Source of the DNA: Burkholderia metallica
GTDB taxonomy: Bacteria > Pseudomonadota > Gammaproteobacteria > Burkholderiales > Burkholderiaceae
Reading direction: 5' to 3'
Length of the DNA stretch: 64,000 nt
Assembly: GCF_902832845.1 (NCBI RefSeq)
Contig: NZ_CADFDB010000003.1
Coordinates: 248,001 to 312,000 of the forward strand
This document shows positions 47,455 to 63,159 of this stretch, in pieces. The position numbers were made by a program, and so were the translations under genes. The notes below the pieces were generated by a model. The model was not told the origin of the DNA, did no database searches, and was given only the letters and a program-made list of their open reading frames with translations. How positions within the stretch are numbered: position 1 is the first letter of the stretch; each line of letters opens with the position of its first letter.

Positions 47455-48135
47455 TCAGGCGCCGCGCGACAACGACAACCGCATCCGGATCGAATCGAGT
47501 TCAGCGGGCAGCCGGCGCGAACGCGCGCGGGGCCGCGGCAGCGCGGTGAACCCGAGCCGCTCGTAAAGCGCACGGGCCCGCACGTTGCGGGTCAGCACGT
47601 CGAGCACGACATCGCGGCCGCCGTCGGCGGGCAACGCGCCGGTATCCAGCGCGTCGCGAAACAGCGCGCTGAAGATTCCCGTGCCGCGCTGCCGCTCGTC
47701 GGTGGCGCAATGCGCGACGAGAATCTGCGAACGCTTCGGCGCCGGAATTTCCGTTTCGAGGATCAGCCCGCGCAACAACTGGCCGATCGTGCGGCGCACG
47801 CCGAAGAAGCGCGCCAGCGCCCACGCGACATGCACGTCGTCGAACCACGTCTGCCGCCCGTCGTGAATCGCCATCACGGCGAGCACGGCGCCGTCGTCGG
47901 CGACCGCGACACGATGCCGGCGCCACGAGAAGCGCCCGTGACGCGACCGGAACACCTGCTGCAGGAAGGCGATGCACCGCGTGTCGCTTTCACCGAGAAA
48001 GAACCCGAATTCAGCCACGCCGGACGCGAACACGAGCGGCGCGCACGCCGCCGCGTCGCCGGCCGCGGCCGCACGAAACCGCACGCGCTCGTCGGCGCGC
48101 GGCGCCGCTTGCGCGAACGCACCGGCCGGCGTCAC
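47455..48135 (-). CDS. GNAT-family N-acetyltransferase in capsule operon
   Basis: This 226-residue protein has a GNAT acetyl-CoA domain in its second half: VAHCATDERQRGTGIFSALF is the acyl-CoA pyrophosphate loop (motif A) and NVRARALYERLGFTALPRPR is motif B. The first half holds a variable substrate region. The GTG start at 48135 overlaps the wcbT stop (GTGA), so it is translationally coupled and forms the end of the capsule operon. In this setting it could acylate the amino group of a WcbT product or of a capsule amino sugar; that is inference. Confidence 0.8.
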   Translation of the reverse strand: MTPAGAFAQAAPRADERVRFRAAAAGDAAACAPLVFASGVAEFGFFLGESDTRCIAFLQQVFRSRHGRFSWRRHRVAVADDGAVLAVMAIHDGRQTWFDDVHVAWALARFFGVRRTIGQLLRGLILETEIPAPKRSQILVAHCATDERQRGTGIFSALFRDALDTGALPADGGRDVVLDVLTRNVRARALYERLGFTALPRPRARSRRLPAELDSIRMRLSLSRGA

Positions 48136-49460
48136 GCGCCGCGCCCCGCGAGCCGCGACAACACGGCAATCGTCCGGCTGATCTGCTCCGGCTCGTGCGT
48201 CGAGCAGATGAAGAAGCGCAGGCGCGCCGCTTTTTCCTCGACGGCCGGATAGAAGATCGGCTGCACGTTGATCCCTTCGTCGAACATCGCGTTGGCCCAT
48301 TGCGCGGCCTTCAGCGAGCTGCCCGTGATCACCGGCACGACTGCGAACCCGGCGCTCGTCCCCGTATTCAGCCCGGCGGCGCGCGCTTCGGTCAGGAACT
48401 GTCGCCCGCGCGCCTGCAGTCGCGCGACACGCTCCGGCTCCGCCTGCAGGCGTTCGAGCGCGGCCAGCGACGCTTCGGCGAGCGCCGGCGCGAGCCCGAC
48501 GCTGTACAGGAAGCCCGGCGCCAGGTGACGCAGCATGTCGACGAGCGGCTGGCAACCGGCGATGAAGCCGCCGCAGCCCGCCAGCGTCTTGCTCATCGTG
48601 CCCATCCACATGTCGACCTGGTCGGACGCGACGCCGCCATGCTCGCGGATGCCCCTGCCGGTCGCGCCGAGCACGCCGAGCGAATGCGCTTCGTCGACCA
48701 GCAGGAATGCGCCGTGACGCGTCTTCACGTCGACGAAGCGCTGCAGGTCGGGGAAATCGCCGTCCATGCTGTACAGCCCTTCGATCGCGATCAGCACGTG
48801 CCGGTATTCGCGGCGCACGCGCGACAGCAGTTCGTCGAGCGCCTGCCAGTCGTTGTGCGCGAAGCTCAGCCGCTTCGCGCCGCTCAGCTGCGCGCCCTGC
48901 ACGATGCTGTTGTGCGCGAGCGCATCGTGGACGATCAGATCGCCGGGGCCGAACAGCGCGCCGATCACCGTCACGTTCGTCGCGTGGCCGCTCACGAACG
49001 CGACGCAGTCGTCGGTCTCGTAGAACGCGGCCAGCGCGCGCTCGAGGTCGCGCTGCACCGGACGCTCGCCCGCGACCATCCGGCTCGCGGAGGCCGACGT
49101 GCCGTAGCGGTCGATCGCGGCTTTCGCGCGCGAGGACACGGCCGGATCGCCGGCAAGACCGAGGTAGTTGTAGTTCGCGAAGTTCAGATACTCGCGGCCG
49201 CCGATCAGCGTCGTCGCACCGGCCACGCCGTCGTGCACGCGGAAAAACGGCGAGTCGACGCGCAGCTTCTCGCCCATCTCGCGCATGATCCGCACCTGCT
49301 GATACTGCGGCATCGATTCGAAGCGGCTGCGCGCCGATGCGCCCTGCGCGGCGGGCGTGCCGGGCACGCCCGGTGCCGCGGCCGCCTCGGTCGCGCGCCC
49401 CAGTTGCCGTTTCAGCGCTTTCGCCGCCAGTTGCTGGCGAAGATGCTCTCCCAGTGCCAT
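48132..49460 (-). CDS. wcbT: Alpha-oxoamine synthase (serine palmitoyltransferase-like), capsule cluster
   Basis: This 442-residue PLP enzyme belongs to the family of serine palmitoyltransferase, 8-amino-7-oxononanoate synthase and 2-amino-3-ketobutyrate ligase. LIVHDALAHNSIVQGAQLSG, LLVDEAHSLGVLGATGRGIR and GTMSKTLAGCGGF, with the PLP lysine at Lys291, are all intact. The enzyme class condenses an acyl thioester with an amino acid and releases CO2 to give an aminoketone. The first 45 residues are a low-complexity extension. It lies 64 bp after wcbS and overlaps the GNAT gene. As the PKS in this operon has no thioesterase, WcbT is a good candidate to release its product. Confidence 0.85.
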   Translation of the reverse strand: MALGEHLRQQLAAKALKRQLGRATEAAAAPGVPGTPAAQGASARSRFESMPQYQQVRIMREMGEKLRVDSPFFRVHDGVAGATTLIGGREYLNFANYNYLGLAGDPAVSSRAKAAIDRYGTSASASRMVAGERPVQRDLERALAAFYETDDCVAFVSGHATNVTVIGALFGPGDLIVHDALAHNSIVQGAQLSGAKRLSFAHNDWQALDELLSRVRREYRHVLIAIEGLYSMDGDFPDLQRFVDVKTRHGAFLLVDEAHSLGVLGATGRGIREHGGVASDQVDMWMGTMSKTLAGCGGFIAGCQPLVDMLRHLAPGFLYSVGLAPALAEASLAALERLQAEPERVARLQARGRQFLTEARAAGLNTGTSAGFAVVPVITGSSLKAAQWANAMFDEGINVQPIFYPAVEEKAARLRFFICSTHEPEQISRTIAVLSRLAGRGA

Positions 49461-49514
49461 TGCTTCCTTCGCTCTGTCTCGAAAAGACGCTATGTTACGC
49501 CGCGCGTCATGAAA

Positions 49515-49532
49515 ACGCGTGGTGTCACGCGT
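49515..49532 (-). terminator. Weak hairpin-T element at the wcbS/wcbT junction
   Basis: ACGCGTG and CACGCGT form a perfect 7-bp stem with a GTGT loop that spans the wcbS stop. On the minus strand it is followed by TTTT. It may reduce, but can hardly prevent, transcription into wcbT. Confidence 0.35.
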
Positions 49533-50442
49533 CGGGAAACTCGGCCCACTCCCACGCGGTGGGTTCGGCCAGCAGCGCGTCCACCAGCCGGAAGTTCATC
49601 TCGTGGCTCGGCCGCAGCGCGCTCACGCGCGCCAGGAGCGGCGCGCCGGCCAGCGCGAGATCGCCGACCAGGTCGAGCACGCGGTGCCGGACGAACTCTT
49701 CCGGCAGCCGCATCCCGCCCAGCACGCGATTGCCGACGATGGACGCCGTACACGACGGCCGCGCACCGCGCAGGATCGGCACCCCGCGCAGATAGCCGGC
49801 GACGATCGCGGGCACCGCCCACTTCACGCGGCCATACGAGCGCGACGGCGCGATTTCGGTCGCAAACGCGGCCGGCGTCAGCGCGCCGTCCCAATGCATG
49901 TCGCCGAAGCCGCGCAGGTCGTTGCGCACGCTCAGTTCGTAACGCGGCGCCGGTTCGATCCGCATTTCGCGCCGCTGGTCGCCGTCGCCGTCGGTGACGA
50001 CGACGGGCCGCAGCACCCGGATGAAACGTTTCGGCGCATCGAGCGCGACGCGCCCGCACGCGCGGATCGCGTCCACCCACGGCGCGGCACTGCCGTCGAG
50101 AATCGGCACTTCCTCGGCATCGATCTCGACGATCGCGTGATCGATCTCGCACGCGAGCAGCGACGCGAGCAGATGCTCGATCGTGCGAACGCCGACGCCG
50201 TCGGCATTGCGCAGCATCGTGCAGAGCGGCTGCGCACGGCGCAGCGCGGGATCGACCGGCAGCGTCGCGAGCGTGCGCCCCTGCGCGACGCGACGGAACG
50301 CAATGCCCGTCACGCCCTCTTCCGGACGCGCGGGCAGGATCCGCACGCTCACCCGGCGCCCCGTGTGCAGCCCGTGACCGTCGATCGTCAGCGGACCTGC
50401 CAGCGTGCCCTGCCGCGATGCCCAGCCGGACGGCGCGCTCAT
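49525..50442 (-). CDS. wcbS: LpxC-type zinc deacetylase, capsule cluster
   Basis: This 305-residue protein has the two-domain fold of UDP-3-O-acyl-N-acetylglucosamine deacetylase. GHGLHTG lies near the N-terminus and RTIEHLLAS supplies Glu89 and the zinc ligand His90. EVPILDGSA follows. RHRVLDLVGDL supplies zinc ligands His253 and Asp257 plus Asp261, and SHEMN supplies the catalytic His280. All catalytic residues are present, so it is probably an active N-deacetylase. The housekeeping lpxC normally sits in the division cluster, so this is a second copy with its own substrate. It overlaps the wcbR stop by four bases. Confidence 0.85.
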   Translation of the reverse strand: MSAPSGWASRQGTLAGPLTIDGHGLHTGRRVSVRILPARPEEGVTGIAFRRVAQGRTLATLPVDPALRRAQPLCTMLRNADGVGVRTIEHLLASLLACEIDHAIVEIDAEEVPILDGSAAPWVDAIRACGRVALDAPKRFIRVLRPVVVTDGDGDQRREMRIEPAPRYELSVRNDLRGFGDMHWDGALTPAAFATEIAPSRSYGRVKWAVPAIVAGYLRGVPILRGARPSCTASIVGNRVLGGMRLPEEFVRHRVLDLVGDLALAGAPLLARVSALRPSHEMNFRLVDALLAEPTAWEWAEFPDA

Positions 50443-53400
50443 CGCGCGACCTCCAGCGTCGGCGACACCTGGCCCGCCACGGGCGCGTGCCGGCTATCGA
50501 GCATCGCGCGCGCTTCGCCGTCGATCGCGTGCTTCGCGGCGAGCGCCGCGACGGCCTCCTGCGCGGCATCCGTCGTGGAGCCGGCGTCCGCGTCGGCCGA
50601 CGCGCCGATCGAATCGACGATACGTCCGGCCAGCGTCGTCACCGATGCGCCCTCGGCAATCGCCATCACCGACAGCTTGACCTCGAATGCTTCCTCGACC
50701 GCGAGGCCGAGTTCCATTCCCATCAGCGAATCCATCCCCATGTCGAGCACGGATTTGTCGAGCGCGATGCGATCGGGCGTCATGTGCAGGATCCGCGCGA
50801 TCTGCGCCTGCAGCGTCCGGGCAACCAATGCGATCGCTTCGTCGCGCGGCAGCGCCAGCACTTCTTCCCGCAGTTGCGTGCCGCCGTCGCGCGCATCGCC
50901 GCCCTGCGCATGCGATTGCAGCAGCACATACCGGCGTGCCTTCGCGGCCGGCATCCCGCGCGCCACCGTGTGCCAGTCGAGCCGGACCACGGCTTCGCCT
51001 GCCGCACCGGCCATCAGCGCGCGTTCGAGCGCGACCATCGCTTCGTCGGACGTGATCGATGCGCCGCCGATCCGCGACTGCAACGCCTCGCGCGTATCCG
51101 CGTGACGCGCGAGGAAGCCGACGTCCTCGAGCGGCCCCCAGGCCATGAACGTGCCCGGCAGGCCCGCCGCGCGACGATGCTCGACGAGCGCCTCGAGGAA
51201 GCTGTTGGCCGCGACGTAGTTCGACTGCCCCGGATTGCCGAGATAGGTCGTCGCCGACGAATAGACCACGAACAGGTCGAGCGGCAACGCGCGCGTCGCG
51301 CGATGCAGGTTCCACGCGCCGGCCACCTTCGGGGCGAGCACCGCGGCCATGCGCGCATCGTCGAGATTGCGCACGAGGCCGTCGTCGATCGACATCGCGG
51401 AATGCAGCACGCCCTTCAATGGGCTGTCGCCCCGGACGATCGCATCGATCATCGCATCAACCGCCGCCGCGTCGGTCACATCGCACGACACGACCTCGAC
51501 CGTGACACCGAGTGTCGCGCGCCAGCGCTCGACTTCCTCGCGTGCGGCAGCAGCGAGTTCGCCGGAGCGGCTCGCCAGCGTCAGCCGGCGGGCGCCGCGC
51601 TCGACCATCCAGCGCGCGCTCGCGAAGCCGAGCCCGCCCGTGCCGCCGACCACCAGGTACGTGCCGTGCGGATCGAGCGCGAGCGAACCCGCGCGCGTGA
51701 CGCCGCGCGTCGGGGCCGGCGTGCCGGACGGATAGGTCACGAGCACCTTGCCGATCTGGCGCGCCTGCTGCATGTAGCGGAACGCGTCCTCCGCCCGTTC
51801 GGCGGGAAACGCGCGATACGGCAGCGGATGCAGCACGCCGGCTGCGAACAGCGCCATCACGTCGCCGAACAGGCGCGCGGTCAGCTCCGGGAGCGCCCCC
51901 ATCAACTGGTCGGCGTCGATGCCGAAGTAGCTGATGTTGTTGCGGAACGGCCGCAGCCCGATATGGCTGTTTTCGTAGAAGTCGCGCTTGCCGAGCTCGA
52001 GGAAACGGCCGAACGGCCGCAGCGTATCGATGCTGCGCACCATCGCCTCGCCAGCGAGCGAATTCAGCACGATGTCGACGCCCTCGCCGCCCGTCATCGC
52101 GCGAATCTCGTCCGCGAACGCGAGGCTGCGCGAATCGAGCACGTGGTCCGCGCCGAGCAGGCGCACGAACTCGCGCTTCTCGTCGCTGCCGGCCGTCGCG
52201 AACACTTCCGCGCCGAAGTGGCGCGCGAGCTGGATCGCGGCGATTCCGACACCGCCCGCGCCGCCGTGCACGAGCACGCGCTCGCCGCGACGCAGCCGCG
52301 CGAGTTCGACGAGCGCGTAGTACGCGGTGAAGAACGTGGTCGGCACCGTCGCCGCTTCCTCGAACGACAGCCGCTCGGGTTTCTGCGCGATCGCCTGCGC
52401 GCGCGTCCTCACGCGCGTCGCGAACGACGCCGGCGCGAAGCCGAGAATCGCATCGCCCGGCGCGAATTCCGTCACGGCGTCGCCCACCCGGACGACGCGG
52501 CCCGACAGCTCCATGCCGATCGTCGCGCCCGCGAAGCCGGTCTCGACCGCTTCATCGGACAGCAGCCCCATCGCATACATCACGTCACGGAAATTAAGGC
52601 CGGTCGCAACGGGCTCGATCTCCACCTCGTCCGCGCCCAGCGCGCTTTCCGGCAACGCGAACCATTCGAGATTGCGCAACGAGCCCGGCGCATCGAACGC
52701 GAGCACGGCCGCACGCGCGATCGCACCGTCGTTGCGCGCCGCAGCCTGTGCGGCGGTCAGCATGCGCGGCACCTGCCGCCCGTGTGCGCCCAGAATGACT
52801 TCTTCCTCGACGGCAGCGCCGGTCAGCTCGCGAATCAATGCGTCGGGGAGGCTGTCCGCCGCGCGATCGACATCGATCAGGCGGCAGGCGAGTTCGGGGT
52901 GCTCGTTCGCCAGCACGCGGCCGAGGCCCCATAGCGTCGCCTGTTCCGGATGCGCATTCGCGCTCCCGGAGAACGGCGCGCCGCCGCGTGTGACGACGGT
53001 CAGCCGCATGGCCGCGTTCGGCTGTGCACCGAGCACACGCACGAGCGCCGCCAGCGCGATCACGCCGTTACGCTGCGCAGCCATCAGGTCGTCCCCCGTC
53101 GTCGATTCGACGAGCGGCGTTTCCGGCGCGCAGAACACGACATGCGCCGGCTGCCCGGCCGGCAACGACGCGATTGCATCGGCCGCGTGCGTGACGTCGA
53201 CGATATCGGCCGGATAGCCCGCGCGCGCCAGCGCATCGGCCAGCTGCCCGCCGAAACCGCCGGCGGCGTCGGGTGCGTGCATCACGAGCCATTGCTCGCT
53301 GCGCGCCAGCGTATCGAGATCGTTCGATTCGTCGTCGCGTCGCGCGGCGATGGCGCTCGCGGGGTTGCGCGCGATGACGAGCGTCGGCGTGCCGTCCAGA

Positions 53401-56400
53401 TCGAGCGACTGCTCGACGTGCCGTACGACGTCGACGTAGCCCGCGCGTTCGAGCGCCGACTCGAGCGCCGCCGGCGTCGGCGGCACAGCCGCATCGGCTT
53501 CAGCCGACGCAGCCTGCGCGCCCGATACGATGTCGGAGAAGCGCCCGCGCCGCGATTCGGCCAGCAGCAACAAGCCGCCCGGCGCCAGCCACGACCGCAT
53601 CGCATTCAGTGCGTCGGCCACGTCGCGATGGCCGCTCAACGCGCGGTTCGCGACGATCAGGTCGTACGGGCCGGCGTCGTCGGCCGCCAGCGACAGCCGC
53701 TCGCCCGACTGCAGCGCGACCGTGCGCACCGCCGCTTCCGCATCCGTGTCGAACCCGGCCAGCTGGCCGGCCGTCGCGGCGATCGTGTGATCGCAGCGCG
53801 CGGCCGCGAGATGCATGCCGAGCGTCTGCAGCACGTCGCCGTCCGTCGCGCCCAGTTCGAGCACGCGCAACCGGCGTGCCGGCTGCCATTCGTCGACGGC
53901 CTGCTCGACGCTTGCGCCCAGCAACGCGTGCACGTGCTGCCACGTCGGCGATGCGGCAAGAAGTTGTTCGACGAGACTGTGCCCGGTCGGCGACAGCAGG
54001 CGCGCGCCGTCCTTCTCCCCGCTCAGCACGTCGGGCAACGCCGCGCCGCAGTGCGCGAGCAACGTCAGCTCCGCCACGTGCCCCGGCGATTCGGCCAGCA
54101 GCCCGCGCCACAGCTCGTCGAGCGGCGGCAGCGCCGCACATGCCGCGTCGTCGCGCACGAGCAGCGCGCCATCGCGATGCGCGAGACCGTCCTCGACCAG
54201 CATGTCGGCAAGACGCGCGGCCAGCGCGTCGCGCCCGGCCGCCGGCTGCCACGTGCCGGAGAAAGCGCCGAGCGCGTCGAACGCGCGAAGCGCGTAGAGG
54301 CTCGCCAGCACGTCGAGCAGCGGCAGGATTTCGGTCAGATGCTGCGTCCGGCGGCCGTCGTGCCCGGCCGCATCGAGCCGCGCAACCGCCTGCGCGAGCA
54401 GCACGTCGGGCGCCGGCAAACCGGCTGCGTCGACGTCGCCCGGCAGCGGCATTTCTTCAAGGTGGTAGACGAAACGCGCGGGCGGGCTCTGCCGGCGGCC
54501 GACGAGATCGACGCGCCGGAACCGGCAGCCGCCGAGCCGCGCGACGATCGCGCCCCGCGCGTCGAGGAATTCGAAATGCGCAACGATCGAATGCGGGCTG
54601 TGCCTGTCGATCCGCACGCGCACCCGCTCGACCGTGTCGCCGCGCAGATAGTCCACCCGGCCGATCTGCACCGGCACGTAGGCCGGATGCTCGCCTTCGC
54701 GCGCGTGCGCCGCCAGCAACGCGAACAGCGGATGAAACCCGCTGTCCATCAGCGCCGGATGCAGCAGATAGGCGGACATCGCCTGCGCGTCGCCGCACGC
54801 GGCCGGCGCGGCGACGTCGGCCAGCGCCTCGCCGTCGCCCGCGGCGACCCGCACGGTGCGGACCCAGCGGAACGCCGGCCCGTAGCCGAGGCCGATGGCC
54901 GCCGTGTTCGCGTACAGCGTGTCGCCGTCGGCGGCGGGCAGCGCGAGCAGACGGGCGAGCGCGTCGGCCGGCACGACGCTCGCGTCGCCGAGCGTGTTGC
55001 CGCTTTCCAGCATCCGCCCCGTCACGTTCAGCGTCCACGCGCTGTCGGACATCCGGTCGCGCGTCTCGATCGTGAAGGTCGCGGTGCGCGGCTCGATCAC
55101 GAGCCGGAACAGTTTCGCCTGCTGCGGCTGGAATACCACCGGCGTGCGGATCTCGACGTCTTCGAGCGCCGCATCCGGCGTATCGAAGAAGGTGCGTGCC
55201 GCCGCGAGCGCCATTTCCACGTACCCGGCCCCCGGGAACGCGACGCCGCCGTCGACCACGTGATCGGCCAGCATCGGCAGCTTCGCCGGATCGAGCTGGT
55301 TTTCCCAAGCGAACGCGTGCTCATGCAGGCGATAGCCGAGCAGCGGATGCGCGCGGCGGCGATTGACGAGGCCGTAGCCTTCGACGGTCGGCGTCAGCCA
55401 GAAGCGCTCGCGCTGCCACGGATAGGACGGCAATGCGGCACGCGATGCGCCCGGCGCGAAGCGCTCGGGATCGACGCTCGCACCATGCGCGATCGCCGCG
55501 AGAATCGCCTGCCGCAGCATCGCCGCGCTGCCGTGATCGCGCTTGAGCGTCGGCAGCGCCACGCCGTTCACGCCGGCTGCCGAGCATGCCTGCTTCACAT
55601 AGCTGCGCAGGATCGAATGCGGCGAGACCTCGACGAACAGCCGGACGCCCTGCTCGATCAGATGCGCGATGCCGTCGCCGAAGCGCACCGGTTCGCGAAT
55701 GTTGCGCCACCAGTAGCGGGCATCGAGCTCGGTGCCGGCCAGCGCGCCGCCGGTCACCGTCGACACGAACGTGCCGTTGCCCGGCTGCGGCCGCAGGCTC
55801 GCCAGTTCGGCCAGCACGACCGGCTCGATGCGGTTCATGTGGCTGCTGTGGAACGCGTAGTCGAGATCCAGCATCTGGAAGAACTTGCCGCTGCCGCGCA
55901 GCGCGGCCTCCAGCGCCTGCAGCCCTTGCAGCTCACCCGCGAGCGTCACCGCATCGGGGCTGTTGATGCCCGCGATCTCGACGCGCCGCGCCAGCCCGTG
56001 GCGCGCGATCAGTTCGCGCGCCGCTGCATCGCCGATGCCGACGGCCGCCATCCGGCCGCTGCCGCGCGTCATCGCCTGCGCGCGGCTGCGGATCTTGATC
56101 ACGCGAACCGCGTCGGCGAGCGACAGCGCGCCCGTCACCCACGCCGCGGCGATCTCGCCGACGCTGTGGCCGATGGCCGCGTCGTAACGCATCCCGCGCG
56201 CGTCGATCACGCGAACCATGCCGACCTGGATCGCGAACAGCAGCGGCTGCGCGTTCTCCGTCGCGGCCAGCCATTCCGCGCCCGCGCCGGCCAGCCATTC
56301 CGCGCCCGGGCCGCCGCGCATCACGTCGACGAGCGACGGGCTGCCGTCGGCACACCACAGCGCGTCGACCTCGTCGAGCGCCGCGCGGAAGACTGCATTC

Positions 56401-58070
56401 TCCGCATAAAGCTCGTTGCCCATCCCGACCCACTGGCAGCCGTTGCCCGAGAAGACGAGCGCGGTGCGCACCGCGTCGGACGGGGCTTGGCCGGTCGCCA
56501 CGCACGCCGGCAGCCCTTCCGACGCCGGCTGGGCCAGCGCCGCCAGCGCCGCGCACCCTTCGGCCACGTCAGCCGGCGCGACGATCGCGCGATGCTCGAG
56601 CCATTGGCGACGACGCGCGGCCGCGGCGGCCAGCGCCTGCCAGTCGCCGCCGTTCTCGAGTGCAGCCAGATAGCGGCCCGCGAGCGCGCCGAGCACGTTC
56701 GCGCTGCGCGCGGTCAGGACGAGCGGAGACAGTTGGGCGGGAGCCGGCTCGGGCGCGGCCTTCGGCGCCACGTTTGCAGCCGGCGCCTCCGTCAGCACGA
56801 CGTGGGCGTTCGTCCCGCCGAAGCCGAACGAGTTGACACCGACCGTCAGCGGCGCGTCGCCCGCGTCGAGCGGCATGTAGCGATCGACGACGCGCAAACG
56901 CCCGCCGTCGAAATCGATCCCGGGATTGGGCGTGACGAAGTGCAGCGAGCGCGGTACCGCGCGATGCTTCAGGCACAGCACGGCCTTCAGCAGCCCGGCC
57001 ATGCCGGATGCCGTCTCGAGATGGCCGATGTTGGTCTTCACCGAACCGATGAGCAGAGGACGATCCGCCGGGCGTTCGCCCGACACGACGTCGATCAGCG
57101 CCCGCGCCTCGATCGGATCGCCGACCGCGGTGCCGGTGCCGTGCGCCTCGAGATACGCGAGCGACTGCGGGTCGATGCCCGCGCGCGCGTACACGCTGCG
57201 CAGCAGCGACGCCTGCGCGGCCGCGCCCGGCACGCTGATGCCGCCGGGCGAATGGCCGACCGAGTTCACGCCGGAGCCGGCGATCACTGCATGGATCGTG
57301 TCGCCGTCGGCGAGCGCGCGATCGAGCGGCTTGAGCAGCACGAACGCGCCGCCTTCCGAGCGGACATAGCCGTCGCCGGTCGCATCGAACGCACGGCAAC
57401 GGCCGCGCGGCGACAGCATCGACGCCTTGGAGAAGCTGACGAAACCGAACGGGTGCAGCAACAGGTTGACGCCGCCGGCGAGCGCCACGTCGGCTTCGCC
57501 GGACTGCAGCGCCTTGACGGCCTGATGGAGCGCGACGAGCGACGACGAGCACGCGGTGTCGACGGACATGCTCGGGCCGCGCAGGTCGAACAGGTAGGAC
57601 ACGCGGTTCGACGCGATGCTCAGCGTATTGCCGGTCGCCGAATACGGATCGATCACGTTCAGATCGTCCATGTTGCGGTTGCCGTAGTCGGTGCCCGCGA
57701 CGCCGACATAGACGCCGCAATTGCTGCCGCGCATGTCGGCCGGACGTACGCCTGCGTCCTCGAAGGCTTCCCATGCGAGTTCGAGCAAGAGGCGCTGCTG
57801 GGGGTCCATCTGGGCCGCTTCGCGCGGAGAAATGCCGAAGAACGCGGCGTCGAAGCCGGCGACGTTGTCGAGCACGCCGGCCGAGAACGTGTAGCTCTTG
57901 CCCGGTTCGCGCTTGGACGGGTGCTGGTAGAAATCGGTGCCGAAGCGGTCCGGCGGGATTTCGGTGACTGCGTCGCGTTCGTCGCGCAGCAGTTGCCAGA
58001 AGTCGCCGAGATTGTTCGCGCTCCCGGGAAACCGACACGCCACCCCAATTATTGCAATCTTACTGTTCAT
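50439..58070 (-). CDS. wcbR: Iterative reducing type I polyketide synthase, capsule cluster
   Basis: This 2543-residue multidomain enzyme holds, in order: ketosynthase (about 1-425; Cys174 in DTACSSS, His310 in EAHGTGT, His350 in KTNIGH); acyltransferase (about 520-840; Ser636 in GHSVGE); dehydratase (about 910-1190; His937 in HVVDGGVAFP, Asp1109); a methyltransferase-like region (about 1300-1560; VLELGATDGD near 1400, weaker than active motifs); enoyl reductase (about 1790-2100; VLVHGGAGGVG near 1935); ketoreductase (about 2130-2320; VVGGTGGLG, Tyr2285); and acyl carrier protein (Ser2448 in GMDSLMG). No thioesterase follows. The full reductive set predicts a saturated fatty chain. In B. pseudomallei wcbR belongs to the capsule I locus. 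Start ATG 58070 (MNSKIAIIGVACRFPGS) follows wcbQ by 3 bp. Confidence 0.93.
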   Translation of the reverse strand: MNSKIAIIGVACRFPGSANNLGDFWQLLRDERDAVTEIPPDRFGTDFYQHPSKREPGKSYTFSAGVLDNVAGFDAAFFGISPREAAQMDPQQRLLLELAWEAFEDAGVRPADMRGSNCGVYVGVAGTDYGNRNMDDLNVIDPYSATGNTLSIASNRVSYLFDLRGPSMSVDTACSSSLVALHQAVKALQSGEADVALAGGVNLLLHPFGFVSFSKASMLSPRGRCRAFDATGDGYVRSEGGAFVLLKPLDRALADGDTIHAVIAGSGVNSVGHSPGGISVPGAAAQASLLRSVYARAGIDPQSLAYLEAHGTGTAVGDPIEARALIDVVSGERPADRPLLIGSVKTNIGHLETASGMAGLLKAVLCLKHRAVPRSLHFVTPNPGIDFDGGRLRVVDRYMPLDAGDAPLTVGVNSFGFGGTNAHVVLTEAPAANVAPKAAPEPAPAQLSPLVLTARSANVLGALAGRYLAALENGGDWQALAAAAARRRQWLEHRAIVAPADVAEGCAALAALAQPASEGLPACVATGQAPSDAVRTALVFSGNGCQWVGMGNELYAENAVFRAALDEVDALWCADGSPSLVDVMRGGPGAEWLAGAGAEWLAATENAQPLLFAIQVGMVRVIDARGMRYDAAIGHSVGEIAAAWVTGALSLADAVRVIKIRSRAQAMTRGSGRMAAVGIGDAAARELIARHGLARRVEIAGINSPDAVTLAGELQGLQALEAALRGSGKFFQMLDLDYAFHSSHMNRIEPVVLAELASLRPQPGNGTFVSTVTGGALAGTELDARYWWRNIREPVRFGDGIAHLIEQGVRLFVEVSPHSILRSYVKQACSAAGVNGVALPTLKRDHGSAAMLRQAILAAIAHGASVDPERFAPGASRAALPSYPWQRERFWLTPTVEGYGLVNRRRAHPLLGYRLHEHAFAWENQLDPAKLPMLADHVVDGGVAFPGAGYVEMALAAARTFFDTPDAALEDVEIRTPVVFQPQQAKLFRLVIEPRTATFTIETRDRMSDSAWTLNVTGRMLESGNTLGDASVVPADALARLLALPAADGDTLYANTAAIGLGYGPAFRWVRTVRVAAGDGEALADVAAPAACGDAQAMSAYLLHPALMDSGFHPLFALLAAHAREGEHPAYVPVQIGRVDYLRGDTVERVRVRIDRHSPHSIVAHFEFLDARGAIVARLGGCRFRRVDLVGRRQSPPARFVYHLEEMPLPGDVDAAGLPAPDVLLAQAVARLDAAGHDGRRTQHLTEILPLLDVLASLYALRAFDALGAFSGTWQPAAGRDALAARLADMLVEDGLAHRDGALLVRDDAACAALPPLDELWRGLLAESPGHVAELTLLAHCGAALPDVLSGEKDGARLLSPTGHSLVEQLLAASPTWQHVHALLGASVEQAVDEWQPARRLRVLELGATDGDVLQTLGMHLAAARCDHTIAATAGQLAGFDTDAEAAVRTVALQSGERLSLAADDAGPYDLIVANRALSGHRDVADALNAMRSWLAPGGLLLLAESRRGRFSDIVSGAQAASAEADAAVPPTPAALESALERAGYVDVVRHVEQSLDLDGTPTLVIARNPASAIAARRDDESNDLDTLARSEQWLVMHAPDAAGGFGGQLADALARAGYPADIVDVTHAADAIASLPAGQPAHVVFCAPETPLVESTTGDDLMAAQRNGVIALAALVRVLGAQPNAAMRLTVVTRGGAPFSGSANAHPEQATLWGLGRVLANEHPELACRLIDVDRAADSLPDALIRELTGAAVEEEVILGAHGRQVPRMLTAAQAAARNDGAIARAAVLAFDAPGSLRNLEWFALPESALGADEVEIEPVATGLNFRDVMYAMGLLSDEAVETGFAGATIGMELSGRVVRVGDAVTEFAPGDAILGFAPASFATRVRTRAQAIAQKPERLSFEEAATVPTTFFTAYYALVELARLRRGERVLVHGGAGGVGIAAIQLARHFGAEVFATAGSDEKREFVRLLGADHVLDSRSLAFADEIRAMTGGEGVDIVLNSLAGEAMVRSIDTLRPFGRFLELGKRDFYENSHIGLRPFRNNISYFGIDADQLMGALPELTARLFGDVMALFAAGVLHPLPYRAFPAERAEDAFRYMQQARQIGKVLVTYPSGTPAPTRGVTRAGSLALDPHGTYLVVGGTGGLGFASARWMVERGARRLTLASRSGELAAAAREEVERWRATLGVTVEVVSCDVTDAAAVDAMIDAIVRGDSPLKGVLHSAMSIDDGLVRNLDDARMAAVLAPKVAGAWNLHRATRALPLDLFVVYSSATTYLGNPGQSNYVAANSFLEALVEHRRAAGLPGTFMAWGPLEDVGFLARHADTREALQSRIGGASITSDEAMVALERALMAGAAGEAVVRLDWHTVARGMPAAKARRYVLLQSHAQGGDARDGGTQLREEVLALPRDEAIALVARTLQAQIARILHMTPDRIALDKSVLDMGMDSLMGMELGLAVEEAFEVKLSVMAIAEGASVTTLAGRIVDSIGASADADAGSTTDAAQEAVAALAAKHAIDGEARAMLDSRHAPVAGQVSPTLEVAR

Positions 58071-58073
58071 CTT

Positions 58074-59606
58074 TTATGTCGCTTTCTCGGACGCGCACGG
58101 CTGCTCCGTGCGATTTCCGTCATCTTGTACCACATGCAAAAGTACCGACCCGAGTTCTTCGGCCGCCAAATTCCGGCATTCGGGAGTGTCTGTGCCGTAA
58201 TTTCGCCAAATGAAGTAGTCGCTGGTTTGCGGAATAACGCCCAGCTTTTCGAAGACATGAGGCAGTGCGGGGACGTGGTCGCCGTAGAAGCAAACGACGG
58301 TTTCACGATCGCTGGTGCGCAAATAATCGAGCAAGCGCCCGATCATTGCGTCTGCATTTTCAATGTGCCGCAGGTATGCAGTCAGGTCACGCCAGGAGGC
58401 GTCTTCGCCAAGAGTATGCCGCGAAGTCGATTCCCCTGGCAAAACCCGCTCGAGGTGCAGCGGGCCATGGTTTTCCATCGTCATGGCGAAGAGGAACTGT
58501 GGGCGGCCACGGTCCGCCGCACTTAGCTTCGAAACGATTGCGTCGGAAACAGCCACATCCGCCACATACGGACCGGCACGCGATGCGGAAGCAAAATGAC
58601 CGATATCGAGGAAATGGGCAAAGCCGAGCAGCGGAAATACCCGGTTACGTCCGAAGAAATCCGCGTAATATGGGTGAATTGCAGTTGTATCGTAGCCGCT
58701 ACATCCCAGCCAGGATGCGAGTGACGCGATTCGACGCCTGACAAATGCGTACGGATAAAAGCGTGCATAGCCAAGCGCGAAGGTTTCCGTGCCGGTCAGC
58801 ACGGCAAATTCCGTACGCATGGTGTTCGCGCCCCAGGCGGGAACGCTCATCTCGCCGTGCCAGACAGCCTCGCGACGCGCGTCGTCGAAGTGCCCGTAGA
58901 GCCCGGACGCGATCGTGTCACCAAGCCGGCGCGCATCGAAGAACGATTCACTCTGGATCACGATCACGTCAGGGCGGCGCCGCGGCTCGCCAATGGCGAA
59001 CGGTCCGGCCGCCACCACTTCAAGCAACCGCCGAAATGTCGTGGGACGCAGGCCATTGAGCAAATAGGCTACAAACACTGCAAAGAAACCATGGCGCCCT
59101 TGGTCGACGTTCGGATCAAGCGTGAGCGGCAGGCGAGCGGCGACGGATACGGCGAGCGCGAATGGCAATACCACCGCAAGCCAGGTCATTGCGGGAGAAC
59201 CTAAAGACACGGACCGCTCGACGACGAAGCCCGCGATCACCAGTACGATGCCGGCTCCAATCGCGGCGAGTTTGCCCACGCTCAGGAACGGCAGGTAGAG
59301 CCGGGGGTGCGAAAACAATTGGCTGAAGAGACTGAGATCGGTAAATACGAACGGCTCACGCAACGACTCGTATTTGGCATTGCTGACTGCAGCGACAAGA
59401 CCGACGAGCGCGAGCGTCGCGCAGGCCGAAAAAAGCGGCCGTGACGTGACGGCGACCAGCAGGTCAAATAAGAAGAGTACCGAAAGAATGTGAAGTGCAG
59501 ACGACAGCAACGGTCGTCGAATCGGTGCCCGCGGAATGGCGACCGCATCGAACGCGAACGAGAACGCAACAGTGGCTGCGAGCCCCCATGTATGGCTCCC
59601 ACTCAA
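58074..59606 (-). CDS. wcbQ: Membrane sulfatase-fold phosphotransferase (LtaS/OpgB type), capsule cluster
   Basis: This protein of about 510 residues has roughly five N-terminal membrane segments and a periplasmic alkaline-phosphatase-fold domain. PDVIVIQSESFFD (metal site), WGANTMRTEF (predicted nucleophilic Thr), MTMENHGPLH and VVCFYGDHVPALP (metal ligands) are the hallmarks of lipoteichoic acid synthase and phosphoglycerol transferase OpgB. It probably transfers a phosphoglycerol or phosphoethanolamine group onto a lipid or sugar outside the inner membrane. I chose a TTG start at 59606 that overlaps the wcbP stop (TTGA) and has a GAAGGG site; no ATG occurs before the membrane segments, and the frame otherwise extends into wcbP. 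Confidence 0.78.
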   Translation of the reverse strand: MSGSHTWGLAATVAFSFAFDAVAIPRAPIRRPLLSSALHILSVLFLFDLLVAVTSRPLFSACATLALVGLVAAVSNAKYESLREPFVFTDLSLFSQLFSHPRLYLPFLSVGKLAAIGAGIVLVIAGFVVERSVSLGSPAMTWLAVVLPFALAVSVAARLPLTLDPNVDQGRHGFFAVFVAYLLNGLRPTTFRRLLEVVAAGPFAIGEPRRRPDVIVIQSESFFDARRLGDTIASGLYGHFDDARREAVWHGEMSVPAWGANTMRTEFAVLTGTETFALGYARFYPYAFVRRRIASLASWLGCSGYDTTAIHPYYADFFGRNRVFPLLGFAHFLDIGHFASASRAGPYVADVAVSDAIVSKLSAADRGRPQFLFAMTMENHGPLHLERVLPGESTSRHTLGEDASWRDLTAYLRHIENADAMIGRLLDYLRTSDRETVVCFYGDHVPALPHVFEKLGVIPQTSDYFIWRNYGTDTPECRNLAAEELGSVLLHVVQDDGNRTEQPCASEKAT

Positions 59607-60394
59607 TTGACCCGGCCCTTCGACGGCAGATACGACAAGCGGCCAAGAATCGCATCGGCCAGCGCGGCGGGTAAAAACGACAGCAGGCGCATGCCGAGCG
59701 CGAGCAAGCCCGGGAACGCGATCTCGCTGCTCCCCGCATCGAGCCGGCGACGAATGTAGGTCGCAGCACGTTCGGCACTCCACAGAAACGGCCTGTCGCC
59801 GGGGAACGCGTCACTCATCGCCGTCTTCACGAAGCCGGGAAGGATCACCGTAACGCCCACCCCGCGGCGAGCCAGCAGCGGTCTTACCGAGTCTCCATAG
59901 GCCTTGATGGCAGATTTGCTCGCGCAATAGGCAGGCGAGATCGCCATGCCGCGCAGCGCGGCGAGCGAGCTGACCATTGCAACGCGACCATACCTGCGCG
60001 AACACATCCGCTCAATGACAGGCAGGACCGTGTTGAGCATGCCGTACAGATTGGTATCGATAACGTGCGCGATGCGCTCCCCCCCCTCCCAATCCGAGGC
60101 CGATGCGATCGTGCTGGCGACACCGGCATTCGCGATCAACAGGTCGATCGGATGCCGGGCGTCGAAATCGTCGAGCCACGCAGCCATGGCCGTCGCCTCA
60201 CGCACGTCGATGACGCCTGTTTCAACCGTAGCACCGCGCGCACGGCAGATCGCAGCGGTCGCATCAATCCGCTCGCGATCGCGACCGATAAGGCCGAGCA
60301 CGGCCCCAGGCCGTGCGTAGGCGTATGCAATAGCTTGACCGAGGCCGGCACTGGCTCCGGTAACCACGATATGCGCCGGCCCTTGATTACGCAT
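59603..60394 (-). CDS. wcbP: Short-chain dehydrogenase, capsule cluster
   Basis: This 263-residue classical SDR has VVTGASAGLGQAIAYAYA, IANAG, and YCASK, with catalytic Tyr156 and Lys160. The C-terminal part (IAFPGLLALGMRLLSFLPAA) is hydrophobic, suggesting membrane association, a feature shared with 3-ketosphinganine reductases. In this operon it could reduce the keto group of an aminoketone made by WcbT, or a sugar intermediate. It overlaps wcbO by 8 bp and wcbQ by 4 bp. Confidence 0.85.
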   Translation of the reverse strand: MRNQGPAHIVVTGASAGLGQAIAYAYARPGAVLGLIGRDRERIDATAAICRARGATVETGVIDVREATAMAAWLDDFDARHPIDLLIANAGVASTIASASDWEGGERIAHVIDTNLYGMLNTVLPVIERMCSRRYGRVAMVSSLAALRGMAISPAYCASKSAIKAYGDSVRPLLARRGVGVTVILPGFVKTAMSDAFPGDRPFLWSAERAATYIRRRLDAGSSEIAFPGLLALGMRLLSFLPAALADAILGRLSYLPSKGRVN

Positions 60395-61592
60395 GTGCCC
60401 GATCCAGCCGGTCGACCGATCCCTTTACCGCCATCTCGATGCCGGTCCGCGTGTAAAAATCGCCGTTGATCTGCGTGTAATGCATGATGTAGTCTAGGAA
60501 CGCTTGATAAAGATCCATGTCCGGCTCGCTCCCTTGCCCCCAGAAGCCATCCAGCGTTCCCTGCCAGGTCAACCCGGGGATTGAGTAGATTGCGTCGCCC
60601 AGCGTAATCAGCGGCCGCCGATGATGTAGGGCCGACAAGCCCACTGTGCTGTTCACCACGACGACGCCCCTAGCATGATCGAGAAGCGTCGGCAAATGCC
60701 CGGCGTCGATAAAGCGAACTCGTTCGGCCACGCACAACTCGTGAGCCAGCCTTTCGGTATAGCGCCTGTATTCGATCAATCCCGTGTCAAGCGGGTGATT
60801 CTTAATTACCAGCAATGAATCCGGCGGAGAATATGCCGCAAACGATTGCACCACACGATCGATTGCGTCACGGACCCCGTCAAATGGGGAATGGACAATA
60901 ATTTGCGCGTCCGAATTCAATTGCAGCGGGAAAAGATAAAAATCCTGCTCTTTCGCCAGAAGTTCTGCTGTCACACGCTCGGCCTCGCCCTGGTGAAGCC
61001 TTTGCAGTAGCGCCCGCGACGCCAGCCCAGCGTATTCAAACAGGCCGTTCTTCGGCCGGTGACTCCGATAATGCGGGAACCGGGCGCTAAGGAACGCATT
61101 GGCTGCACGGTAGCGGATGTCATGAAACGCGCGCTCATACAGGTTATACCCCGTTGGGCGGCCGACCCCGGCGGAGGGCGTCGCGCCGCGCGCCGCGTAG
61201 TAGACAGCCGGATCCTTCGGCAACGACGACCGGCCATTCACGCCGCCGCGCTCAAGCGTCAGCCAATGAGGACGGACGTATCCTTCCTCGAACACATGGA
61301 CCCGGAGGCCGTTCGCCTCGGCGATCGGATGGACAGGACGATGAATTTCCCTACAATCGCCAAACATGACGATGTCAGTAAAATTGCCCGATTTTACGAT
61401 GTGGTCATACCATTCCAGCAAATGCTCGACCGGATCCGAGTAGTTCCAGCTTCCCTTCGAATCCGAATAAATCAGATCCCCGCCACAAAAATTGACCCTA
61501 CGAACCCAGTGTCCGCGCTCACGCAGCGCGGCAGCCAGCCTGCCAAAAAATGGGGAAGCCGTACCCTGCAGGACAAGAAAGGAGCGTTGCAT
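60387..61592 (-). CDS. wcbO: Capsule polysaccharide synthesis protein, KpsS-like Kdo transferase
   Basis: This 401-residue cytoplasmic protein is of the capsule synthesis family (Capsule_synth). HVFEEGYVRPHWLTLERGG is the KpsS/KpsC signature, with LLVIKNHPLDTGLIEYRRY and VVVNSTVGLSALHHRRPLIT later, as in KpsS/LipB. KpsS adds the first beta-Kdo to the lipid acceptor of group 2 capsules, so WcbO marks the step that joins lipid and sugar. It is the first gene of the leftward operon and is preceded by a 411-bp divergent promoter region. Confidence 0.88.
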   Translation of the reverse strand: MQRSFLVLQGTASPFFGRLAAALRERGHWVRRVNFCGGDLIYSDSKGSWNYSDPVEHLLEWYDHIVKSGNFTDIVMFGDCREIHRPVHPIAEANGLRVHVFEEGYVRPHWLTLERGGVNGRSSLPKDPAVYYAARGATPSAGVGRPTGYNLYERAFHDIRYRAANAFLSARFPHYRSHRPKNGLFEYAGLASRALLQRLHQGEAERVTAELLAKEQDFYLFPLQLNSDAQIIVHSPFDGVRDAIDRVVQSFAAYSPPDSLLVIKNHPLDTGLIEYRRYTERLAHELCVAERVRFIDAGHLPTLLDHARGVVVVNSTVGLSALHHRRPLITLGDAIYSIPGLTWQGTLDGFWGQGSEPDMDLYQAFLDYIMHYTQINGDFYTRTGIEMAVKGSVDRLDRAHA

Positions 61593-62004: not shown

Positions 62005-63159
62005 TTGGAAACCACATCTAGCAACGAAACGACCGTACCACCCAACAACGGCAAGAAGCCCTTGATGGAGCGCATCAAGGGAATCAACCGTCTCTTCGCG
62101 TTCACAGTGATCGTCCCAACCGCGATCGCGGTCGCGTACTTCGGTCTCATCGCATCCGACGTTTACGTCTCGGAATCGCGCTTCGTTGTTCGCAGCCCAC
62201 AGCGGCAAATGCAAACGAGCGTCGTGGGCGCATTGCTGCAAGGCTCCGGCTTCTCGCGCGCGCAGGACGACACCTACGCGGTGGTCGACTATATCCAGTC
62301 CCGCGATGCACTACGTGAGTTGAACAAGGCCGACTATATTGCCAACGCGTATGGTGACCACGGCGACTTCGTCAGCAGGTTCTCGAAGTCGTTCGACAAC
62401 AGCTTTGAAGCCCTGCTGAAATACTATCGCAAGCATGTCGTCTCGGTCGACTTCGACTCAGCATCCGCCATCACGACCCTTCAGATCCGCGCCTACACTG
62501 CGCAGGATGCCGAAAGGATCAACGAATCGCTGCTGGAGCTGAGTGAAGGCCTCGTAAATCGCATGAACGATCGTGCCGCGAACGATACCGTGCGATTCGC
62601 GCAGAAGCAGGTCGACCAGGCAACCGAAAAGGCCAAGGATGCAGCTGCAGCTCTAGCCTCATATCGGAACACGCACACGGTTTTCGATCCCGACAAGCAA
62701 TCCGCCTTGGAGCTGCAGCAAGTCAGCAGTCTGCAATCGCAGTTGCTGGCGGCACAGAGCCAACTAATCCAGTTGCAGTCCACCGCGCCGGCAAACCCGC
62801 AGGTCGCGACGCTAAAAACCAATATTTCGACGCTTCAGCGTCAAATCGAGGCGGCCACCAGCGGTGTCGCCGGCCGAACCGGCTCGCTGTCGGACAAGGC
62901 TGCTCAATACGCACGCCTGCAGCTGGAATCGCAGTTTGCGGACAAGCAGCTAGCTTCCGCGATGACAGGTATGGAAAACGCGCGCGCCGAATTGCAGCGC
63001 AAGCAACTCTATCTCGAACGGCTCGTCGAGCCCAACACCCCAGACATCGCAATCGAACCGCGACGCCTAAAATCGATTTTTGAAACTTTCGCGTTGAGCA
63101 TGATCGTCTGGGGCATCTTGAGCCTGTTGCTGGCCGGCGTCCGAGAGCACTATGACTAA
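62005..63159 (+). CDS. wcbD: Capsule polysaccharide export inner-membrane protein (KpsE/CtrB type)
   Basis: This protein of about 384 residues has two membrane helices, LFAFTVIVPTAIAVAYFGLI near the N-terminus and FETFALSMIVWGILSLLLAG at the C-terminus, flanking a long periplasmic coiled-coil region (residues about 170-330). This is the polysaccharide co-polymerase/export pattern of KpsE, BexC and CtrB, which links the ABC transporter to the outer-membrane channel. The start is uncertain: TTG 62005 with a GGGA site gives a 30-residue cytoplasmic head; ATG 62065 (MERIKGINR) is the alternative. The 3' end overlaps wzm by 8 bp. Confidence 0.88.
   Translation: METTSSNETTVPPNNGKKPLMERIKGINRLFAFTVIVPTAIAVAYFGLIASDVYVSESRFVVRSPQRQMQTSVVGALLQGSGFSRAQDDTYAVVDYIQSRDALRELNKADYIANAYGDHGDFVSRFSKSFDNSFEALLKYYRKHVVSVDFDSASAITTLQIRAYTAQDAERINESLLELSEGLVNRMNDRAANDTVRFAQKQVDQATEKAKDAAAALASYRNTHTVFDPDKQSALELQQVSSLQSQLLAAQSQLIQLQSTAPANPQVATLKTNISTLQRQIEAATSGVAGRTGSLSDKAAQYARLQLESQFADKQLASAMTGMENARAELQRKQLYLERLVEPNTPDIAIEPRRLKSIFETFALSMIVWGILSLLLAGVREHYD

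What the first reader, a model, noticed from the sequence alone, without database searches (positions are those of the whole stretch)
47455..61592. Capsule operon that appears to build its own sphingoid-like lipid
One leftward operon encodes a complete reducing PKS (WcbR), an SPT-type alpha-oxoamine synthase (WcbT), a 3-ketosphinganine-reductase-like SDR (WcbP), an LpxC-type deacetylase (WcbS), a GNAT acyltransferase, an LtaS-type phosphotransferase (WcbQ) and a KpsS-like Kdo transferase (WcbO). Established knowledge: SPT-type enzymes condense acyl thioesters with amino acids; KpsS adds Kdo to a lipid acceptor in group 2 capsules, where the known acceptor is lyso-phosphatidylglycerol. Inference: PKS chain, then aminoketone, then amino alcohol, then N-acylation gives a dedicated lipid anchor to which Kdo and capsule are added. 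The wcb genes are known from B. pseudomallei, but I am not aware of a proven biochemical role for this lipid branch.
Basis: partly seen in the sequence, partly recalled or inferred. Interest (0 to 1): 0.85.

Follow-up and report, generated by a model that had tools for sequence, protein, structure and literature searches.

The report
Capsule operon with lipid-making module
A bacterial capsule gene cluster carries its own small fatty-lipid factory, a relative of one long known from root-nodule bacteria, and new comparisons suggest that the sugar-starting enzyme beside it may be specialised for a sphingolipid-like anchor instead of the usual phospholipid.

Summary
In detail: seven overlapping or nearly abutting leftward genes (47455-61592) encode KpsS-like O, SDR P, GacH/LtaS-type Q, PKS/FAS-like R, LpxC-like S, alpha-oxoamine synthase T and GNAT N inside an ABC-transporter capsule locus. 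It is not a new kind: it is the wcb/rkp-1 module (S. meliloti pSymB has R-T-P-Q-O in that order), and a 'lipid carrier or anchor' role is in print. My searches found no sphingoid proposal. Refinements: R has a decayed methyltransferase and no thioesterase; T is below SPT cut-offs, a neighbouring family with kin fused to PKS or ligase-ACP; S and N are lineage extras. New evidence bears on the sphingoid idea. In 33 hand-matched genomes KpsS separates completely by module (1 change on the tree), KpsC does not (6). In a sphingomonad-like family 30 of 33 KpsS are module-type although only 2 of 34 genomes carry T; in 20 of 20 genomes checked an AOS matches the SPT model. So module-type KpsS seems to travel with PKS-AOS or SPT. 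Against: one genome outside the matched set has module-type KpsS without T, linkage could explain the split, and a phospholipid anchor is reported for S. meliloti 1021.

The parts
60387..61592 (-). KpsS-like Kdo transferase (WcbO/RkpJ), module-type clade
   Evidence: Pfam Capsule_synth 358 bits; NCBIfam KpsS 270 bits, below its cut-off 600; trees
59603..60394 (-). SDR oxidoreductase (WcbP/RkpH), proposed 3-keto reductase
   Evidence: adh_short 127 bits; best solved relatives general SDRs
58074..59633 (-). GacH/LtaS-type membrane phosphoglycerol transferase (WcbQ/RkpI); start codon chosen here
   Evidence: Sulfatase 125 bits; GacH best PDB match, active-site E, T and D-H aligned (residue roles recalled); four or five hydrophobic stretches before the catalytic domain
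50439..58070 (-). WcbR/RkpA, type I PKS/FAS-like: KS-AT-DH-decayed MT-ER-KR-ACP, no TE
   Evidence: Pfam domains; motif conservation in 44 sequences
56586..58064 (-). KS domain of WcbR
   Evidence: Cys and two His invariant
55503..56456 (-). AT domain; YAFH motif (malonyl-type reading is recalled knowledge)
53433..53933 (-). decayed methyltransferase-like region
   Evidence: Methyltransf_23 36 bits; SAM motif not conserved
50619..50816 (-). ACP domain of WcbR
   Evidence: PP-binding 46 bits; DSL serine invariant
49525..50442 (-). LpxC-like deacetylase paralogue (WcbS); lineage-specific extra
   Evidence: LpxC 227 bits; PRK13187 622 bits; zinc and catalytic residues aligned to solved LpxC 4mdt (residue roles recalled); stronger LpxC elsewhere in the genome
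48132..49460 (-). alpha-oxoamine synthase (WcbT/RkpG)
   Evidence: PLP family 161 bits; tree; residues aligned with KBL and SPT
47455..48135 (-). GNAT-family protein; lineage-specific extra; start codon chosen here
   Evidence: Acetyltransf_1 25 bits
61888..63159 (+). KpsE-type export protein of the same capsule locus
   Evidence: TIGR01010 362 bits, cut-off 437.5
63152..63961 (+). KpsM-type ABC permease of the same capsule locus
   Evidence: ABC2_membrane, KpsM 94 bits, cut-off 300

Best explanation
This is the wcb/rkp-1 lipid-anchor module of a Kdo-primed, ABC-exported capsule. Proposed order: R, a single-module iterative synthase, builds a saturated acyl chain on its ACP (inferred from intact domains). 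T takes the chain from that ACP and condenses it with an amino acid, most likely serine, releasing an amino-ketone (chemistry inferred from the family and from natural PKS-AOS fusions; serine is inference only). P reduces the ketone to a sphingoid-like amino alcohol (inference). Q adds glycerol phosphate from phosphatidylglycerol (donor inferred from GacH), either to this lipid, giving a lyso-PG look-alike, or later to the exported linker or glycan. Module-type KpsS puts the first Kdo on this lipid (inferred from the KpsS split), KpsC extends the Kdo linker, and KpsMT-E-D export the capsule. S and the GNAT adjust the amine or a sugar in Burkholderiaceae. Shown here: gene content, conserved core, fusions, KpsS-specific split, SPT co-occurrence. 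Not shown: any product or activity.
For: Same five core genes in the same order on S. meliloti Ak57 pSymB (L211: R, T, P, Q, O). KpsC-KpsS-P-Q-R-T runs without S or GNAT in L027, L075, L076. Of 56 named T loci with at least 20 kb held (of 80 returned), R is in view in 54, P in 25, Q in 27, a Kps gene in 29 (views end 10 kb either side). In 399 genomes of the order, T (E <= 1e-100) occurs in 26 and Capsule_synth (E <= 1e-10) in 40, both in 19; 21 of the 373 without T have Capsule_synth; Fisher p 4e-16, genomes not independent. T's clade lies inside a clade holding PKS-ACP-AOS (L089, L217) and ligase-ACP-AOS (L030, L102) fusions. KpsS separates by module: in 33 genomes or records matched by hand, KpsS 1 change, KpsC 6; wider KpsS tree, 44 rows, 2 changes against a shuffled mean of 11.6; E. 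coli KpsS on the no-module side. In family f253, 34 of 169 genomes have Capsule_synth at E <= 1e-20, 2 of these 34 have T at E <= 1e-100, yet 30 of 33 KpsS are module-type, 8 of 33 loci keep P and Q beside KpsS without R or T in view, and in 20 of 20 genomes checked the chosen AOS matches the SPT model at E <= 1e-100.
Against: No structure of such an anchor was found. A cited title reports a 'phospholipid anchor' on the Kdo polymer of S. meliloti 1021 (seen in reference lists); from memory its abstract partly identified it as phosphoglycerol with a hydroxy-C28 acid, which has no amine. G671 has module-type KpsS, no T, and one weak AOS match (E 7e-43; not tested with the SPT model); it is not in the matched set. 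G424 moves between the two sides from tree to tree. G650, a same-genus genome with P-Q-R-S-T-N, shows no KpsS, only one weak Capsule_synth match, and still counts among the 19. Two T-bearing genomes (G427, G472) have no Capsule_synth at E <= 1e-10, so Kdo is not always involved. 22 of 33 f253 loci have KpsS without P or Q in view. Three f253 KpsS are E. coli-type; SPT was not checked in those three genomes. The label 'no module' of four matched records (three E. coli, one Cupriavidus metallidurans) rests on the stretch in view. KpsS sits in the module's operon, so linkage could give the split without acceptor specificity. Only two weak clade-diagnostic KpsS positions were found. LtaS-family enzymes are expected to work outside the membrane, KpsS inside (recalled).
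Confidence: 0.55

Rival explanations
1. The module makes a dedicated lipid anchor, but it is a phosphoglycerol-acyl lipid, not a sphingoid: R supplies a special long chain and T acts in some other acyl transfer.
For: Title of Fraysse 2005 on a phospholipid anchor (reference lists; abstract recalled only); Q is closest to a phosphoglycerol transferase; (lyso-)PG is the known KpsS acceptor (PMC7694667, passages).
Against: T keeps the PLP lysine and the other family residues and its kin are fused behind ACPs, which points to amino-ketone formation; the KpsS type in SPT-bearing genomes is unexplained.
Confidence: 0.2
2. KpsS and the lipid genes are inherited together as a cassette; the KpsS split reflects linkage, and the lipid is an envelope lipid made with the capsule but not its anchor.
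For: KpsS is in the same operon here and in L027, L075, L076; KpsC, here far from the operon, does not split.
Against: KpsC is next to KpsS in several loci (L027, L075, L076, L126, L133, L178) yet mixes on the tree; f253 loci keep module-type KpsS without R and T in view; rkp-1 is described as required for secretion of the Kdo polymer (PMC4881576).
Confidence: 0.15
3. Q decorates the exported glycan with glycerol phosphate and has nothing to do with the anchor.
For: The Cobetia marina capsule carries mannose-6-phosphoglycerol and its cluster has a wcb operon (PMC11766843); Q resembles GacH, which decorates a glycan (GacH function recalled); periplasmic topology expected.
Against: The repeat unit given for B. 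pseudomallei CPS I lists no glycerol phosphate (PMC5507470) although Q is in that operon, and a transposon screen lists wcbQ among capsule hits (PMC4631991), though polar effects are possible; P and Q are both in view in 19 of 56 named loci.
Confidence: 0.4

Closest known systems
rkp-1 region (rkpA, G, H, I, J) of Sinorhizobium
   Same: PKS/FAS, AOS, SDR, LtaS-type protein and KpsS in one order on S. meliloti Ak57 pSymB; lipid carrier role proposed in print
   Different: No LpxC-like S or GNAT found in that stretch; KpsD beside it; published rkp-1 is described as chromosomal, so the pSymB set is equated with it by content
wcb operon of B. pseudomallei capsule I and of Cobetia
   Same: Gene names wcbO to wcbT; wcbPQRT in Cobetia
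   Different: The window's locus has dTDP-rhamnose-type genes (by first residues) where capsule I is a heptose homopolymer
Serine palmitoyltransferase with dedicated ACP (Rhodobacteria)
   Same: PLP condensing enzyme fed by a carrier protein (PMC9386255, passages)
   Different: T is a neighbouring family, below SPT cut-offs, with the chain built by a PKS instead of a ligase-loaded ACP
Fungal fumonisin-type PKS plus AOS release (recalled, no call)
   Same: Reducing PKS without thioesterase, released by an AOS, then an SDR
   Different: Secondary metabolite, alanine-derived; not capsule-linked
E. coli K5 group 2 capsule
   Same: KpsS/KpsC Kdo linker and ABC export
   Different: (lyso-)PG acceptor; E. 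coli KpsS sequences lie in the other clade
Vi antigen anchor
   Same: A capsule with a dedicated lipid anchor that is not lyso-PG (PMC12220298, passages)
   Different: Acylated N-acetylhexosamine, no Kdo linker; no PKS known (recalled)

Membership tests
wcb/rkp-1 capsule lipid module | Adjacent PKS/FAS, AOS, SDR, LtaS-type and KpsS genes | tested here: met
   Window; S. meliloti; other taxa
wcb/rkp-1 capsule lipid module | Needed for capsule export in the organism | not testable with these tools
   Published for rkp-1, not for this strain
ABC-transporter-dependent (group 2/3) capsule locus | KpsE, M, T, D with KpsC and KpsS | tested here: met
   KpsE, KpsM and KpsS are below the NCBIfam equivalog cut-offs
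Serine palmitoyltransferase | Curated SPT score cut-offs | tested here: not met
   291/500, 281/640, 232/670 bits; also not met by L076 and the S. meliloti protein
Serine palmitoyltransferase | Position inside the SPT clade | tested here: not met
   T clade is separate (100/99) with SPT as neighbour (97/84); only two SPT rows, so named by me from an adjacent ACP gene; long branches, unsettled bootstrap
Serine palmitoyltransferase | Uses serine | not testable with these tools
   No diagnostic residue tested
alpha-oxoamine synthases | PLP lysine, Asp/His and carboxylate-binding Arg conserved | tested here: met
   Alignment to KBL and SPT, invariant columns in 22 rows; residue roles recalled
Highly reducing type I PKS/FAS | KS-AT-DH-ER-KR-ACP with intact motifs | tested here: met
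Highly reducing PKS with C-methylation | Intact methyltransferase SAM motif | tested here: not met
   Motif scrambled across 44 rows
GacH/LtaS phosphoglycerol transferases | Catalytic E, T, D-H and N-terminal membrane helices | tested here: met
   by one alignment and hydropathy
LpxC | Zinc ligands and catalytic Glu/His | tested here: met
   residue roles recalled
LpxC (TIGR00325 equivalog) | Curated cut-off | tested here: not met
   173.6 of 187.25 bits, though PRK13187 passes, 622 of 423; a stronger LpxC lies elsewhere
KpsS (NF050054) | Curated cut-off | tested here: not met
   270 of 600 bits
KpsS-like Kdo transferases | Capsule_synth domain and residues shared with E. coli-type KpsS | tested here: met

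The most novel reading that the evidence does not exclude
Kdo-primed capsules of Proteobacteria use two anchor chemistries with two matching KpsS lineages: E. coli-type KpsS on lyso-phosphatidylglycerol, and module-type KpsS on a sphingoid-type lipid (perhaps sphingoid-phosphoglycerol) that is made either by the PKS-AOS module or, in sphingomonads, by the cell's own serine palmitoyltransferase.
Probability: 0.4. Interest if true: 0.8.

Novelty: new member of a known kind. Interest (0 to 1): 0.55.

Why it matters
The lipid of the rkp/wcb module was postulated in papers of the 1990s (as cited) and I found no proven structure for it beyond the reported phospholipid anchor of S. meliloti 1021. The KpsS split and the SPT-bearing genomes give it a definite identity that can be tested in harmless model organisms. 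If true, it would define a second class of capsule anchors and give bacterial sphingolipids a structural role in capsule attachment.

Tried and rejected
T as a true SPT: rejected on cut-offs and tree. R as a methylating PKS: rejected, SAM motif decayed. GNAT and LpxC as core steps: not supported; S or N appears in 10 of 80 named loci, all Burkholderiaceae (L146, L150-L154, L157, L159, L160, L162), plus S in unnamed L021. Caveat: my N profile came from two sequences and would miss distant GNATs such as the one in the Pseudomonas plasmid module. The reading frames after T in L027 and L075 were looked at as possible GNATs; they look like NusG/RfaH-type proteins by their first residues (no family scan). 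An SPT inside the f253 capsule loci L304/L322: the AOS there is BioF-like, just under that cut-off. Residues in KpsS that would mark acceptor choice: only two conservative ones. KpsC as an equal marker of the module: it mixes (module label 9 changes, 23 rows). The own-genome search with PF01553 mainly gave the genome's handle. One motif string (KR LDD) was mistyped and not found. Structure prediction and fold search were not used.

Choices and rows dropped before counts: one search used 44 of 45 sequences (L143 fragment left out); the 33 pairs were picked by hand, G671 is not among them, and four 'no module' labels rest on the stretch in view; one search shows 22 of 33 f253 KpsS and leaves out 12 other rows, (quick method) has all 85; one search lost rows without a KpsC frame of 450 residues; f253 loci are from 33 of 34 genomes (G1269 not fetched); SPT was checked in 20 of 34 f253 genomes, one AOS each, chosen by me. 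One search left out L201, L260 and L331. In the searches only the four best candidates of each genome were scored. Papers: passages by term search of 15 papers, none read whole; Kiss 1997, Mueller 2009, Cuccui 2012 and Fraysse 2005 were looked for and are not held, Petrovics 1993 was not looked for; what I say of these comes from citing papers, titles, or is marked as recalled.
Full report
What is there. The seven genes lie on the minus strand between 47455 and 61592 with overlapping or nearly touching ends. To the right run KpsE and KpsM, and beyond the window KpsT, glycosyltransferases, KpsD and a KpsC with two Capsule_synth stretches; rml genes and mutL are named from first residues only. 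The genus is Burkholderia, inferred because contigs of same-genus genomes have the lengths of named Burkholderia contigs (120,989 bases, Burkholderia sp. Bp8963; 161,817 bases, B. singularis). The species was not determined.

Anatomy. R has KS, AT, DH, a methyltransferase-like stretch, ER, KR and ACP, and no thioesterase match. In 44 sequences (window plus 43 of more than 2300 residues, several of them from the same genus) the catalytic letters of KS, AT, DH, KR and ACP are invariant where a letter is present, and the ER glycines nearly so, while the SAM motif is scrambled. R should therefore make a saturated, unbranched chain and needs a partner to release it (inference). T keeps the PLP lysine and partner residues when aligned with KBL and SPT. 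Q aligns best with GacH, with Glu, Thr and Asp-His kept, behind four or five hydrophobic stretches. S keeps the LpxC zinc ligands but is a second copy: a stronger LpxC is at C3:557687.

A known module. Homologues of T at E <= 1e-100 occur in 46 of 65 genomes of the genus, 26 of 399 of the order, 11 of 369 of the class and 19 of 398 of the phylum, the window's genome counted each time; the samples overlap. Named loci include Halomonadaceae, Bordetella, Pseudomonas, Marinobacterium, Nitrosomonas, Methylobacterium, Roseibium, a Nitrospira MAG and a Desulfomicrobium MAG (the best 80 of at least 588). S. meliloti Ak57 pSymB carries R, T, P, Q, O in this order, with KpsD beside them; this is the content described for rkpA and rkpGHIJ, which the literature places on the chromosome. 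Published text already says that these genes make and modify a lipid carrier or anchor and calls wcb and rkp orthologous. A 2025 paper uses 'lipid carrier biosynthesis (wcb operon)' and adds that little is known of the functions. I found no paper that proposes a sphingoid product (ten searches; open-access library only).

Core and extras. KpsC-KpsS-P-Q-R-T stand together without S or GNAT in L027, L075 and L076. Of 56 named loci with at least 20 kb held, R is in view in 54, P in 25, Q in 27, any Kps gene in 29; S in 9 and N in 8, all Burkholderiaceae. These are lower bounds, because views end 10 kb from T and the N profile is narrow. T without Capsule_synth in the genome, but beside KpsD, M and T, occurs in G427 and G472, so some of these capsules may use the lipid without a Kdo linker.

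Chain transfer. The T clade (20 chosen rows plus L088; 97/96) sits in a larger clade (100/99) with single proteins that join PKS and AOS (L089 KS-AT-DH-ER-KR-ACP-AOS; L217 from Planktothrix, annotated as one PKS gene) or ligase, ACP and AOS (L030, L102). SPT is the neighbouring group (97/84); it is represented by two rows that I named SPT from an adjacent ACP gene and an unannotated Prevotella row, the bootstrap had not settled, and BioF is a long branch. This supports that T takes its chain from a carrier protein, as Caulobacter SPT does (PMC9386255, passages). Serine as partner is inference: it would leave the primary hydroxyl that a KpsS-like enzyme or Q needs.

Link to KpsS. In 399 genomes of the order, 19 of the 26 with T and 21 of the 373 without it have Capsule_synth; one of the 19, G650, has only a weak match and no KpsS. 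Five of the seven T-only genomes have T at 50% identity or less and look like outgroup loci. On the tree, KpsS of module-bearing genomes and KpsS of the others fall apart (31 module and 13 no-module rows, 2 changes, shuffled mean 11.6; exceptions L200 and L201), and E. coli KpsS joins the no-module side. The control is KpsC, which works after the lipid has its first Kdo: in the same 33 hand-picked genomes or records (17 with module, 16 without; G671 not included) KpsS needs 1 change and KpsC 6. KpsC of two module-bearing Burkholderia (L093, L109) is sister to KpsC of two no-module genomes, G618 and G557, although their KpsS fall on opposite sides.

Natural replacement. A Novosphingobium plasmid has module-type KpsS beside P- and Q-like genes without R or T in the 33 kb seen. 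Following this, in family f253 (where all four genomes passing the SPT cut-off in a phylum sample of 150 lie; the Novosphingobium KpsS nests among its KpsS), 34 of 169 genomes have Capsule_synth. Two of the 34 have T (57-58% identity); in the other 32 the AOS matches have 37% identity or less. Of 33 KpsS loci, 8 have P and Q without R or T, 22 have KpsS without P and Q in view, 2 have Q and a BioF-like gene, 1 has all (one of the 8, G1201, has T on another contig). Thirty of the 33 KpsS are module-type, three (L301, L307, L331) are on the E. coli side (quick method). In 20 of 20 genomes checked the AOS I chose matches the SPT model at E <= 1e-100 (only the first is shown with its score, above the cut-off). 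The simple reading is that module-type KpsS needs a sphingoid-type acceptor, from SPT or from R and T.

What speaks against. G671 has module-type KpsS, no T and one weak AOS match. Linkage of KpsS with the lipid genes could cause the split. Q should act outside the membrane, which sits badly with a role before KpsS; Cobetia's glycan carries phosphoglycerol. Above all, S. meliloti 1021 poly-Kdo is reported to carry a phospholipid anchor (title in reference lists); my memory of the abstract, phosphoglycerol with a hydroxy-C28 acid partly identified, fits Q but not an amine. The lipid-anchor role is therefore likely, the sphingoid identity open but now testable.

Verdict.

Noticed in passing
46718-47314, + strand; L005:4759-6477: An APS kinase (PF01583, 210 bits) sits just beyond the GNAT, and the capsule locus right of the window holds a sulfotransferase-like reading frame (named from its first residues; no Pfam hit). 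Together they may mean a sulfated capsule, as in Cobetia.
   Followed up: partly
L066, L058 (G427, G472), L147: R-T pairs beside KpsD, KpsM and KpsT; G427 and G472 have no Capsule_synth match at E <= 1e-10 in the genome (L147, Nitrosomonas, not searched): possibly capsules on this lipid without a Kdo linker.
   Followed up: partly
L030:6476-9820, L102:2988-6392, L219:5398-10221: Ligase-ACP-AOS single proteins (L030, L102) and a long AOS-ended protein in Streptomyces (L219, other domains not scanned), with no Kps gene detected in view for L030 and L102: likely makers of other amino-ketone lipids.
   Followed up: no
L168, L172, L174, L184: Two tandem KpsS-like genes beside KpsC and KpsD in Stappia/Roseibium-type loci.
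   Followed up: no
L258:12618-13235, L257:778-1581 and 10537-11925: Sterol-desaturase-type proteins (both plasmids) and a cytochrome P450 (Shinella) lie near the lipid/KpsS genes: possible hydroxylases of the anchor lipid.
   Followed up: no
L089:7832-15667: A fused PKS-AOS shows no methyltransferase match, unlike WcbR, where that stretch remains but is decayed.
   Followed up: partly
L213: A plasmid typed as mobilizable in a Pseudomonas carries R-T, P-Q, KpsS and KpsC-like genes with KpsF and KdsB and a different GNAT, so the capsule lipid module may travel by plasmid.
   Followed up: partly
L027:2408-2929, L075:17376-17891: A NusG/RfaH-like reading frame (by first residues) follows T in two Halomonadaceae-type loci, perhaps an antiterminator of the long capsule operon.
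   Followed up: no
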